From Niabella agricola (GTDB lineage Bacteria; Bacteroidota; Bacteroidia; Chitinophagales; Chitinophagaceae), in assembly GCF_021538615.1 (NCBI RefSeq), contig NZ_JAJHIZ010000002.1:992001-1056000 (forward strand): DNA of 64,000 nucleotides, read 5' to 3'. The number at the start of each line of letters is the position of its first letter. Within the stretch, counting starts at the first letter, position 1. The notes under the pieces were generated by a model that did not search any database, was not told the origin of the DNA, and saw only the letters and a list, made by a program, of their open reading frames with translations. Below, in pieces: positions 24,888-35,464 of the stretch. Made by a program: the position numbers and the translations under genes.

Positions 24888-24967
24888 GCAAGGTACCCTA
24901 CGGTACGGCAATTGAGGGATCCTTCGGCTCCTCCCGACTTTCGCCGGGATGCGCTGCCAATGACGTA

Positions 24968-26290
24968 TTATTTAAGCGATTGTATTTCAACGAACTTCAT
25001 TCCATATTTTAAAGCCATTTTTTGTAAATATTTCTGTTCTCTTTCTTTGAGTTGTTGTTCATACTTATGAATGCCTTGCTCTATATATTGAGCTCCTTTT
25101 GTTAATAAATTATAGAATGCAGTAGCTATTTTTCTTGCCCCGGCTTTTATTGCTATGCGCGCCTCTTTTCTACTCTTTAGTTTCCTGATAAAGGCTCCAA
25201 TAGCTATATACTTACTATTAAGCAAGGCCTGAGCTACTTCGCGGAAGGTTTGGCCTGCATTGGAGTGATTCTTCATTTTCGACTTCCTGCTTTTAGAACC
25301 GCTCTGGTTATGACCGGGACAAAGACCGCACCAGCTCACAAAATGCTTTACCGTTGGAAACCGGCTCATATCTGCCCCCACTTCTCCCAGTAGCTTTAGT
25401 AGTGTATAATCAGTGATGCCAGGAATGCAATTGGCATCTACGCCATAAATATTTAGTAATTTCTGGTGCAAATCGGTTATCATGGGTTTATGATGCCGTA
25501 CCGGTTTGGCTTTATACTCACTTGCTACAAACTGTCTACCCTGCTCCAAATCACCTAGCAATGCTTCAATACGCTTATCAATACGCAGGAGTTGTTTTTG
25601 GTGCACCTTCCAAAGAATTAAATTTTGTTCCAGCAGGAATAACCAACTTTCATTGTAATGCCCTTCAAGTGCGTTTAAAACCGCATCTGCCTTCTTTTCC
25701 CGGATGCTTACATGGCAAAGTGCCAGTAATTTTTCTTTATTACGCTCTCCATTGATGATCGCCTCTATCATCCGTATACCGCTGGCACCATTAATTTGAC
25801 AGATTACTTCTGTGAGTTTAATATTCATTAACTCCAATGCCTTTTGCATCTTATTCACATAGGTACTTCCCATACCAATAATATCTTCCCGCTCCCGAAT
25901 CATCATTCGTAACTCTTTTAACTTGCCGGCAGGAATATAACTCTGGCGCACCAGACCGGCACTAAACATTTTTTGTATCCAACAGGCATCTTTTACATCT
26001 GTCTTTCTACCCTTTACCTGCTTTACTTCTTTGGGATTAACCAGGCATACTTCCATGCCCGCTTCTTCCAGCATCTGGTGCAGGGCTATCCAGTAGATGC
26101 CTGTGGCCTCCATACACACCCGCTGTACACCGTTAGCCCTAAGCTCATCGATACATTGCTTATAGCTGCCCGTAAAAGTCTCATAACTTTTTACGGTAAT
26201 CCCATCCCAGCAAACAAAGATCTTTTTTGAGCCAATATCTATGGCGGCTGCATTTGCATTTTGTTGCTCAAACTCAATTACCTTTGACAT
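24968..26290 (-). CDS. IS110-family DEDD transposase
   Basis: 440 residues. The N-terminal RuvC-like DEDD domain shows Asp18 (AAAIDIGSKK), Glu61 (VCMEATGIYW) and Asp98/Asp101 (GRKTDVKDACW). The C-terminal Transposase_20 domain contains GVDANCIPGITDYTLLKLL and WCGLCPGHNQSGSKSRKSK, where the catalytic serine of this family lies. IS110 enzymes are RNA-guided recombinases that use a bridge RNA from the element's own non-coding end. The frame is intact, so the element may be active. Confidence 0.95.
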   Translation of the reverse strand: MSKVIEFEQQNANAAAIDIGSKKIFVCWDGITVKSYETFTGSYKQCIDELRANGVQRVCMEATGIYWIALHQMLEEAGMEVCLVNPKEVKQVKGRKTDVKDACWIQKMFSAGLVRQSYIPAGKLKELRMMIREREDIIGMGSTYVNKMQKALELMNIKLTEVICQINGASGIRMIEAIINGERNKEKLLALCHVSIREKKADAVLNALEGHYNESWLFLLEQNLILWKVHQKQLLRIDKRIEALLGDLEQGRQFVASEYKAKPVRHHKPMITDLHQKLLNIYGVDANCIPGITDYTLLKLLGEVGADMSRFPTVKHFVSWCGLCPGHNQSGSKSRKSKMKNHSNAGQTFREVAQALLNSKYIAIGAFIRKLKSRKEARIAIKAGARKIATAFYNLLTKGAQYIEQGIHKYEQQLKEREQKYLQKMALKYGMKFVEIQSLK

Positions 26291-26317
26291 AACTATTATC
26301 TTTAAAAGTTAGAAAAT

Positions 26318-26480
26318 AGCAGGCTACAGCTCAAAGAGGTTCTGAAAAAAGGCAAGCTGCCAAACGGGAATACTGCCTCAACAGTATCACCAAACAATAA
26401 TGGACCGTTCTTTGAAGCAAAACTCAGGGACAGGTACTTAGACACTAACCGATGTTACTGCTACACTGCTGTAGCCTGCT
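26318..26480 (-). ncRNA. Candidate IS110 bridge RNA
   Basis: In transposase sense the region is enclosed by a perfect 13-bp stem: AGCAGGCTACAGC (from 26480 down to 26468) pairs with GCTGTAGCCTGCT (26330 to 26318). Inside are two small hairpins, ATACTG/CAGTAT and GGCA/TGCC. At ~163 nt and directly upstream of the transposase it matches the position and size of bridge RNAs. The octamer AACTCAGG occurs both here (26421-26428) and across the element's right junction (26536-26543), as a guide segment would. Expression and loop assignment are not shown. Confidence 0.6.
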
Positions 26481-26593
26481 TTAATCAAAGATAATCCACG
26501 TCATAGACCCCAATAATTTTGATCCGCTAATGGTTAACTCAGGATGACGGAAGCGGGATGGGTTATGGCTGCATGGCAGCGACAGATCACTCT

Positions 26594-26830
26594 CACCGTC
26601 ATGTTGAGCGAAGTGCAACGGAGTCGAAACATCTCTGTAATACCAAACAGTCCGACAATGGAGGGATCCTTCAGCTTCTCCCGACTTTCGCCGGGATGCG
26701 CTCAGGATAACGGAACTATAATTATCCTTTAGCGTCATGTTGAGCGGAGCAACGCGGAGTCGAAACATCCCTGTAATACCAAGCGGTTCGATAATTGAGG
26801 GATCCCTCAGCTCCACTACGTCGCGCTAGA
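26594..26830. repeat. Dispersed repeat family B (two units)
   Basis: Two units begin GTCATGTTGAGCG near 26596 and 26736. They share GGAGTCGAAACATC, CTGTAATACCAA and GAGGGATCC. A partial unit at 24910-24955 and its continuation at 26540 were split by the IS110 insertion. GTCATGTTGAGCG..GTCGAAACATC is a common type of dispersed intergenic element in Bacteroidota. Confidence 0.8.
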
Positions 26831-33513: not shown

Positions 33514-35464
33514 TTATCCTTCCAGCTCCATCAATTTCGTAAAAATGGCTTCATAATCTTTTTCCAGCCGCTGGTTCTCCTTGGTGGCAGCGGCATAATC
33601 CTGCTCGGCCTTTAAGAAGCGGTTGCGATCAGAATAGATCTGCGGATCGCCCAGGTCTTTTTCCAGCTGCGCCATCAGCGCTTTATTTTTACTCAGCGCC
33701 TCCTCCGTTTGCTGAAATAATTTTTGCTGGCGCTGGATCTCCTTTTTCAGTCCTTATTGATGGGGGCATTGCTTACCGGCGCGGTGTTGGAGGCGGTGCT
33801 GGTGTGGTTGCTGCTACAGCAGCGGGTTTCGATTTCTGTGCATTGGCTTCCCGCTTTTTCAGCGTCAGCTGTTTCCGCATCCGCTCGTTCCAGGCTACCA
33901 TTCATCATAAGGGCCCTTAAATTCTTTGATCTTCCGTCTACGATTTCCCAGATCTTGTGGCGCTTTTGAAATAAAGTGCCGGTCGTGGCTTACCAGGAAT
34001 CATCGTGCCTTCGTATCGGTTAAGAGCATTGATGAGCAGGTCCACACTGTGCATATCCAGGTGGTTTGTAGGCTCATCCAGCATCAGGAAATTGGCCTTG
34101 CTTACGATAGTCTTCGCCAGGGCCACGCGGGCTTTTCGCCCCCGCTGAGGATCCGGATCTTTTATCGGCATCATCGCCGCTGAATAAAAACAACCCAGCA
34201 GCGCCCGCAATTCCAGGTCCGTCATCTGGCTGCCGCAGCCCCGCATTTCATCCAGGATGGTATTTTCCAGGGTGAGGGCTTCCAGCTGGTGCTGGGCATA
34301 AAAGCTTTCTTCCACGTTTATGTCCCCATTTGCGGTTGCCGTTATAGGATTCCGCATCGGCATAATCCGCAGTAGGGTCGATTTTCCTTTACCGTTGGCC
34401 CCGATCAGTGCGATCTTATCGCCCCGCTCGATCTCCGCCTTGGCATCTTTCAGGATCACGTTGTCGCCAAATGCCTTCGACAATGGTCGAGTTCCACCGT
34501 ACCCCCGCCCGGTACTTTATCACCCTAAAGTTAATGCGAAGATCGGGTCGCTCAATCGCCACATCCTCAATGCGTTCCAGCTTGTCGAGTTTTTTTCATA
34601 ATGCTCTGTGCATGGCGGCCTTGCTGGCCTTGGCGCGGAAACGCTCCACCAGGCGCTCGTTCTGGCGGATATAGTCCTGCTGGTTCTCATAAGCTTTTTG
34701 CTGCATCTCGATGCGCACGGCTTTTTTCCTTTTCATAAAATTCGTAATTGCCGTTATAGAAATGCAGTTCGCGCTGGTAGAGCTCCACGATCTTGGTCAC
34801 CATCCCGGTTGAGAAAAATTTATCGTGACTCACAATCACCACGGCACCCTGGTATGCTGCAGGTATTTTTCCAGCCATTCAATGGAAGGCAAATCGAGGT
34901 GGTTGGTGGGCTCATCCAGCAGCAGCAGGTCGGGCTTGGCCAGGATCATCTTGGCCAGCAGTACCCGCATCCGCCATCCCCCGCTGAATTCTTTATACGG
35001 ACGGTTCAGGTCGGCATTGGAAAACCCCAGCCCCTGCAGCACTTCCTCGGTTTTATGCTGAATGTTATAGCCGCCCAGCAACTCCATTTCGTGGAGCTTG
35101 TCGGTGTATTCGAGCAGGGTCTTTTCGTCGCCGGTCTTTTCCAGCTCGGCACCCAGGGCTTCTATTTCTTTTCCAGCTGCAGCACTTTTTCAAAAGCGCT
35201 CATCGCCACCTGTAAAATGGAATCATTGGTATCAAAACTCAGGAGGTCCTGGTGCAGGTAGCCAATGGTGGTTTCCTTGCTGCGCTCCACGGTTCCTGCT
35301 GAAGGAGTGTATTGGTTCACAAATAATTTCAGCAGGGTGGATTTACCCGTGCCGTTATAACCGATCAGCCCGATGCGTTCATTGGGCTGTATATGCCAGG
35401 TAGCATCTTCTACAATGATCCTTGCACCAAATTCAAACGTAACATTCTGTAAGCCGATTAACAT
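33514..35464 (-). pseudogene. ABC-F family ATPase (Uup/EttA-like), multiple frameshifts
   Basis: The intact gene would encode ~650 residues from MLIGLQNVTFEFGARI at 35464 to QLEKDLG...ELEG at 33514. Both ATPase cassettes are visible: Walker A GYNGTGKST and GANGKGKST, signatures FSGGWRMR and a damaged second one, and Walker B LLLDEPTNHLDL and LMLDEPTNHLDM. A C-terminal coiled-coil tail is also visible (LFQQTEEALSKNKAL). Frames change at least near 35165, 34850, 34750, 34600-34480, 34180 and 34000, plus 33750. ABC-F proteins act on ribosomes, either resolving stalls or conferring antibiotic resistance. Either a dead gene or a poorly sequenced stretch. Confidence 0.8.

What the first reader, a model, noticed from the sequence alone, without database searches (positions are those of the whole stretch)
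26318..26480. Candidate bridge RNA in the IS110 non-coding end
A 163-nt segment upstream of the transposase is closed by a perfect 13-bp stem and holds two inner hairpins. The octamer AACTCAGG appears both inside it (26421-26428) and across the element-target junction (26536-26543), as expected of a guide. Known: IS110 elements such as IS621 encode a ~177-nt bridge RNA here. Inference: this is the bridge RNA and its loops select the family B target.
Basis: partly seen in the sequence, partly recalled or inferred. Interest (0 to 1): 0.7.

Follow-up and report, generated by a model that had tools for sequence, protein, structure and literature searches.

The report
Bridge RNA of a Bacteroidota insertion sequence
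A short RNA gene beside a jumping-gene enzyme carries two seven-letter guides that match the places where such elements join the genome, so it very probably is the RNA that tells this mobile DNA where to insert, in an arrangement that differs from the best-studied example.

Summary
The fold was matched in 72 of 100 sources, ahead of a long open frame in 70, and covaries strongly (95.4% of cells paired, 70.9% shuffled). Its loops hold 7-nt left guides: a family's own guide occurs exactly at the right-end donor site in 31 of 49 families (4 of 1121 swapped) and at the left target in 29 of 50 (18 of 2185 swapped); hold-out families repeat this. The window copy itself matches its target at 6 of 7. 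Handshake bases after the target guide covary with the element end. The core reads AG with the transposase; its A is nearly invariant. Left guides lie 3' of each apical hairpin, opposite to IS621, and subterminal inverted repeats are long (7 bp here). So an IS110-like upstream RNA gene is combined with IS1111-like guide order and repeats, as if IS621's cassette were inverted relative to its sites. Right guides are weak (target) or not found (donor); transcription and activity are untested. New variant of a known kind.

The parts
24954..26539 (-). IS110-family element with both core dinucleotides (AG read with the transposase; CT on + at 24954-24955 and 26538-26539)
   Evidence: flank comparison of four genomic copies
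24968..26290 (-). IS110 recombinase, 440 aa; DEDD residues and serine align with IS621
   Evidence: Pfam PF01548 + PF02371, NCBIfam NF033542; residues aligned; top fold match IS621 8wt9
26318..26480 (-). bridge RNA gene, bounded by closing stem P1 (26468-26480 with 26318-26330)
   Evidence: model match 26329-26464, 140.4 bits, the window row being one of the sequences the model was built from; P1 own-pair helix score 9.77 vs 6.23 swapped, n=51, p=0.0005
26448..26457 (-). 5' side of the target-binding loop, probable place of a short right target guide (register unresolved)
   Evidence: longest match to reverse complement of right target 2.86 vs 2.37, p=0.0005, n=43; hold-out p=0.019, n=12
26431..26447 (-). 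apical hairpin of the target-binding loop (TAGTG..ACCTG)
   Evidence: helix 2 of A4, 98.6% of cells paired
26423..26429 (-). left target guide CCCTGAG (5 nt + core AG)
   Evidence: own exact in 29 of 50 families vs 18 of 2185 swapped; the window family is not among the exact ones
26421..26422 (-). target-loop handshake guide TT, equal to the first two bases of the element's left end
   Evidence: z 4.3 and 5.0; hold-out p=0.007 and 0.0005, n=16
26331..26415 (-). donor-binding domain enclosed by P2 (26409-26415 with 26331-26337)
   Evidence: helix 3 of A4: all 7 pairs show two-sided changes
26365..26394 (-). apical hairpin of the donor-binding loop (TTTGGTGATACTG..CAGTATTCCCG)
   Evidence: helix 4 of A4, 9 of 10 pairs with two-sided changes
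26357..26363 (-). left donor guide TTGGCAG; the next base (26356) is the donor-loop handshake position
   Evidence: same 7 letters at the right end, 24954-24960; own exact in 31 of 49 families vs 4 of 1121 swapped; handshake z 3.7, not significant in hold-out
26498..26504 (-). left-end arm of the subterminal inverted repeat (ATGACGT)
   Evidence: families: own mean 7.32 bp vs 5.03 swapped, p=0.0005, n=34
24960..24966 (-). right-end arm of the subterminal inverted repeat (ACGTCAT)
26486..26493 (-). TATCTTTG, resembles the Bacteroidota -7 promoter box TAnnTTTG (motif recalled), just before the RNA's 5' stem
   Evidence: exact motif in only 6 of 26 rows, mostly Bacteroidota, so suggestive only
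26538..26549 (-). left half of the target, CGTCATCCTGAG, part of a dispersed genomic repeat
   Evidence: 18 exact CGTCANNCTGAGCG sites in the genome vs 0 for the reversed pattern

Best explanation
The segment is the bridge RNA (seekRNA) gene of an IS110-family element. The RNA is read from the minus strand ahead of the recombinase gene and folds into a target-binding and a donor-binding domain inside closing stem P1. [quoted passage not shown] in the donor loop TTGGCAG (26357-26363) pairs with the element's own right end in the circular form. The recombinase brings both sites together and exchanges strands at the shared AG core, so each junction keeps one core and no other duplication. Two bases after the target guide match the incoming element end and would stabilise the exchanged strand (handshake). 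Shown by sequence: fold, left guides, target-loop handshake, core agreement between loops, subterminal repeats. Supported more weakly: a short right target guide on the 5' side of the target loop; a donor-loop handshake. Not found: a right donor guide. Inferred from IS621: transcription, RNP, circle, chemistry. Because guide order, handshake side and core (CT on the other strand) are all reversed together, the simplest reading is IS621-type recognition with the recombinase-RNA cassette inverted relative to the recombination sites.
For: Model R1 from 8 relatives matches 72 of 100 sources at E up to 1; an open frame of over 900 nt follows on the same strand in 70 of the 72, L044 being cut by its contig end and L110 having the RNA downstream. 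Covariation 95.4% vs 70.9% shuffled and at most 48.5% slid; 94.5% vs 73.0% in A5; both alignments were fitted to models carrying this structure, but an alignment made without it gave the same helices (22 sequences). Own vs swapped guides: donor 31/49 vs 4/1121, target 29/50 vs 18/2185; hold-out 10/15 vs 0/181 and 10/23 vs 9/419. Core: A in 75/75 target guides and 74/75 donor guides, second letter agrees between loops in 67/74, p=0.0001. Natural reprogramming within the genus: in family G2 the core is AC instead of AG in both guides, at all 5 targets and at the donor end. Target handshake z 4.3/5.0, hold-out p 0.007/0.0005. Four copies with 1-3 differences in a 1592-base alignment. Recombinase fold matches IS621 8wt9, E 3e-11.
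Against: No transcript data. The targets of the window copy, L003 and L004 match the guide at 6 of 7 (L001 at 7 of 7), and the eight G1 and G2 copies of the sister genome at 5-6 of 7 (letters). 18 of 49 donor and 21 of 50 target tests were not exact at 7 nt. No right donor guide was found. The donor-loop handshake was not significant in the hold-out set (p=0.14, n=12), and its z (3.7) hardly exceeds the next signal (3.5). Families share ancestry, so p-values are rough.
Confidence: 0.93

Rival explanations
1. The conserved structure is a cis-acting DNA or mRNA-leader element (terminator, regulator or transposase-binding stem) and the guide matches come from common ancestry.
For: P1 is followed by a T-rich stretch; the window element lies in repeats that share TGAG.
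Against: Guides change family by family together with the flanking target DNA: 29/50 own vs 18/2185 swapped, repeated in a hold-out set; G2 changes the core in both guides, at all 5 targets and at the donor end; one relative carries the same RNA family downstream of the gene with both guides still matching.
Confidence: 0.04
2. It is a plain IS110-group (IS621-type) bridge RNA with the left guide on the 5' side, and the reversed order is an artefact of the fold or of orientation.
For: The RNA gene is upstream of the transposase and the right end is short, as in the IS110 group.
Against: Helix 2 lies 5' of the target guide and helix 4 lies 5' of the donor guide, both with two-sided changes; handshake bases follow the left guides, whereas in IS621 they follow the right guides; neither model hits IS621.
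Confidence: 0.08
3. It belongs to the IS1111 group and its RNA gene has moved upstream (a question of classification, compatible with the best explanation).
For: IS1111-like guide order and long subterminal repeats; L110 has the RNA downstream; Siddiquee et al. mention a few with an upstream NCR (passage).
Against: The 440-aa transposase falls in a supported clade apart from IS4321 as well as IS621, though those two are long branches whose place is unsure; neither model hits IS4321.
Confidence: 0.3

Closest known systems
IS621 bridge RNA (IS110 group; Durrant 2024 PMC11208160: passages and section 12; Hiraizumi 2024 PMC11208158: passages)
   Same: RNA gene upstream of a DEDD/serine recombinase, two guide loops, core included in the guides, handshake guides, insertion into a genomic repeat, recombinase fold
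   Different: left guides 3' (not 5') of the apical hairpins; core AG with the transposase (CT on the other strand); 7-nt left guides; 7-bp subterminal repeat instead of 2-3 bp; recombinase 440 vs 326 aa; IS621 RNA not recognised by the models
IS1111-group seekRNA (Siddiquee 2024 PMC11187229: abstract, passages, section 12)
   Same: order of top- and bottom-strand matches; long subterminal inverted repeats
   Different: IS1111 RNA region is usually downstream of tnp; IS4321 region not recognised by the models; IS4321 recombinase 334 aa on a long branch
ISCro4 bridge recombinase (PDB 9t56)
   Same: fold and weak sequence match
   Different: about 20% identity over the structural alignment; guides not compared here
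TIGR-Tas (PDB 9mty; NF052498)
   Same: distant fold match and a sub-threshold family match
   Different: RNA-guided endonuclease by its name; not tested further

Membership tests
IS110 family (DEDD recombinase) | PF01548 + PF02371 domains, DEDD residues, serine in the second domain | tested here: met
   catalytic numbering of IS621 partly recalled
IS110 family (DEDD recombinase) | insertion without duplication beyond a short core | tested here: met
   junctions of 4 copies share only AG; uninterrupted repeats read ..CTGAGCG..
bridge RNA / seekRNA | conserved structured RNA in the long non-coding end | tested here: met
   (structure only; transcription not tested)
bridge RNA / seekRNA | left guides match own target and own donor | tested here: met
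bridge RNA / seekRNA | right target and right donor guides | tested here: inconclusive
   right target guide weakly supported, right donor guide not found
bridge RNA / seekRNA | RNA is transcribed, bound by the recombinase and needed for insertion | not testable with these tools
   needs RNA sequencing and an assay
IS110 group (IS621 type) | RNA gene in a long left end, short right end | tested here: met
IS110 group (IS621 type) | bottom-strand guide 5' of top-strand guide | tested here: not met
   bottom-strand (left) guide lies 3' of the hairpin; 5' top-strand guide weakly supported
IS110 group (IS621 type) | only 2-3 bp subterminal repeat | tested here: not met
   26 of 34 families have 7 bp or more; window 7 bp
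IS1111 group | RNA region downstream of tnp | tested here: not met
   upstream in the window; one relative, L110, downstream
IS1111 group | subterminal inverted repeats of 7-17 bp and reversed guide order | tested here: met
   window repeat 7 bp, at the low end; order rests on the left guide's place and the weaker right target guide
IS1111 group | transposase related to IS1111 transposases over its full length | tested here: inconclusive
   only IS4321 compared; long branches

The most novel reading that the evidence does not exclude
[quoted passage not shown] Within this one RNA family the gene can sit at either end of the element (one case, L110), so it would be a link between the IS110 and IS1111 arrangements.
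Probability: 0.5. Interest if true: 0.6.

Novelty: new variant of a known kind. Interest (0 to 1): 0.5.

Why it matters
IS621 and ISCro4 are the bridge-RNA systems with solved structures found here. A distinct RNA family with compact 7-nt left guides, its own fold, long subterminal repeats and a mirrored arrangement gives a natural test of which features the mechanism needs, and a route to tracing how the RNA gene moved between element ends. Rfam 15 gave no match to it in the window at gathering thresholds.

Tried and rejected
A single-protein scan of viral contigs confirmed no relative; distant blastn of the element against plasmids gave none. Default MAFFT of 22 RNAs (A2) misaligned the P2 3' strand, so the model was built from 8 close relatives (A3). 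An 8-nt guide was rejected: own exact only 4/49 and 3/50 against 31/49 and 29/50 at 7 nt; a first scoring on 8 nt gave a weaker contrast (own mean 6.67 vs 5.53 and 6.60 vs 5.51 matches of 8). Right donor guide: none of the donor-loop tests was significant. Right target guide register: families suggest different offsets, and the four HT-58-2 copies disagree among themselves. The z-values for left target and left donor are partly circular because junctions were placed with the guides (6 of 7 or better: 44 right and 41 left flanks of 51 families); one search is the clean test. The core counts rest on alignment columns; the donor guides of L049 and L061 look misaligned there. Promoter box TAnnTTTG: exact in 6 of 26 rows, too weak to claim. 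Tree: IS621 and IS4321 are long branches that meet, so group membership is left open. Emticicia L132 falls inside the clade in the tree, yet neither model finds the RNA beside it.

Full report
What is there. The gene at 24968-26290 (minus) encodes 440 aa with the DEDD_Tnp_IS110 and Transposase_20 domains and passes NCBIfam's cut-off for IS110 RNA-guided transposases (204 bits against 140). Its DEDD residues and serine align with IS621 D11, E60, D102, D105 and S241 (the numbering is partly recalled), and its predicted fold (pLDDT 80.7) is closest to IS621 and ISCro4 chains. The own genome has four copies with identical protein and a fifth, broken fragment; the four differ from each other at 1-3 places in a 1592-base alignment that includes a few flank bases. 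Their flanks fix the ends: read with the transposase, CGTCA(C/T)C(C/T)TGAG|TTAACC on the left and ACGTCATTGGCAG|(C/G) on the right, sharing only AG.

The observation. The stem is rare in shuffles (1 of 1000). The octamer also occurs at 35236, so by itself it proves little.

The fold. A model from 8 relatives searched over 100 sources gave 72 matches at E up to 1, the weakest being L075, L082 and L080 at 0.18-0.92. In 70 of 72 an open frame of over 900 nt follows on the same strand; L044 is cut by its contig end and L110 has the RNA downstream. Pair counts on 59 distinct rows: 95.4% of cells paired against 70.9% in shuffles, 452 two-sided changes against 128, at most 48.5% paired when slid. A4 was fitted to a model with this structure, which leans the counts towards it; an alignment of 22 sequences made without it gave the same helices with compensatory changes. 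Closing stem P1, outside the model, is also kept: own-pair score 9.77 against 6.23 for swapped partners, n=51, p=0.0005. In that of 40 sources matched; not matched were IS621 (L129), R751 with IS4321 (L127), L132, L133, L136, L083, L086, L060 and L124. The second model matched 32 of 395 genomes drawn from the phylum, the own genome included.

The guides. I reduced the 72 rows to 51 distinct guide pairs that have a long open frame. The 7-nt donor guide occurs exactly within the tested right-end stretch in 31 of 49 families, against 4 of 1121 guides swapped in from other families that differ at 2 or more letters; the 7-nt target guide occurs exactly on the left in 29 of 50, against 18 of 2185. 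Two families fell out of the donor test and one of the target test because too little DNA was held. At 8 nt the match is lost, so the guide is 5 nt plus the core. The window family is among those without an exact target match: the window copy and L003 have TCCTGAG and L004 has CCTTGAG (each 6 of 7), L001 has CCCTGAG (7 of 7). A hold-out set of 23 guide pairs not in the first alignment gave 10 of 15 against 0 of 181 (donor; 8 pairs had no open frame) and 10 of 23 against 9 of 419 (target); some hold-out target guides are A-rich, which raises chance matches. Within the same genus, genome G581 holds two related families: G1 with core AG and G2 in which the core is AC in the target guide, the donor guide, at all five targets and at the donor end; their targets match the guides at 5-6 of 7.

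Core and handshake. Over 75 guide pairs the first core letter is A in 75 target guides and 74 donor guides, and the second letter agrees between the two loops in 67 of 74 (p=0.0001). In a scan of RNA columns against the element's left end the two strongest same-sense signals were the two bases right after the target guide (z 5.0 and 4.3; next 4.0), and the strongest same-sense signal against the right target was the base right after the donor guide (z 3.7; next 3.5). In the hold-out set the first repeated (81% vs 48%, p=0.007; 81% vs 25%, p=0.0005; n=16), the second was not significant (58% vs 43%, p=0.14, n=12). These are the positions of the handshake guides of IS621, where, however, they follow the right guides (Hiraizumi 2024, passages).

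Right guides. The 5' side of the target loop matches the reverse complement of the right target better than swapped ones (2.86 vs 2.37, p=0.0005, n=43; hold-out 2.58 vs 2.10, p=0.019, n=12). Of the ten region-by-flank comparisons, each at two lengths, only the two that set this region against the right target were significant. The register is unclear. No right donor guide was found.

Arrangement. IS621's left guides lie 5' of the apical hairpins and its handshake bases after the right guides; its core is CT with an almost invariant T. Here left guides and handshake bases lie on the 3' side and the core is A plus a variable letter. Read on the opposite strand the core becomes a variable letter plus T, the 3'-side guide becomes the right guide, and the handshake falls where IS621 has it. 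So everything is reversed together, as if the recombinase-RNA cassette were inverted relative to the sites. This is an inference; no cut site was mapped. Siddiquee 2024 reports that the order of the two target matches is reversed between IS1111 elements and the IS110 element ISEc21, in which the top-strand match lies 3' (abstract and section 12); the window has the IS1111 order with the RNA upstream as in IS110. Subterminal inverted repeats average 7.32 bp against 5.03 swapped, 26 of 34 families having 7 or more (range 4-10); Durrant 2024 gives 2-3 bp for the IS110 group and 7-17 bp for IS1111 (section 12). In L110 the same RNA family lies downstream of the gene, its target guide matching the left junction at 809-816 with the next two bases CT equal to the element end, and its donor guide matching the right junction at 2665-2671. 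I saw no description of this combination in the passages and sections read of the three papers or in the listings; their figures and supplements were not seen, so it may be shown there.

Target. CGTCANNCTGAGCG occurs 18 times exactly in the genome against 0 for the reversed pattern, several in inverted pairs. This parallels IS621, which inserts in REP sequences (title of Choi et al. in a reference list).

Verdict. Bridge RNA: 0.93. New variant of a known kind, because guide order, core and subterminal repeats differ from the IS110-group description while the gene position differs from IS1111.

Noticed in passing
L110:2468-2608: In a Chlamydiae MAG the same RNA family lies downstream of the transposase, with both left guides matching the element junctions.
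   Followed up: partly
window 26597-26676 and 26733-26812: 80-nt direct repeat, 84% alike, starting with CGTCATGTTGAG, next to the element: looks like part of the dispersed repeat family that the element targets.
   Followed up: partly
L066:2269-2402 and 2765-2898: Two copies of the RNA in opposite orientation about 360 bases apart in a cyanobacterium; L113, L149, L097 and L027 also hold two RNA copies.
   Followed up: no
L028, right flank: After this G1 copy CGTCACCTTGAGCGAATG appears about 30 nt beyond the right junction, whose own flank does not look like the repeat; possibly a double insertion or a later rearrangement.
   Followed up: no
L065-L067, left flank: Three of four copies in HT-58-2, and the related families L069, L072 and L077, share TGCAAGAT running into the guide match; the fourth copy (L068) shares little beyond the 7-nt match.
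   Followed up: partly
L124 and L125 (G000 C2 693718-694435), L005: Degenerate IS110 fragments elsewhere in the window's genome.
   Followed up: no
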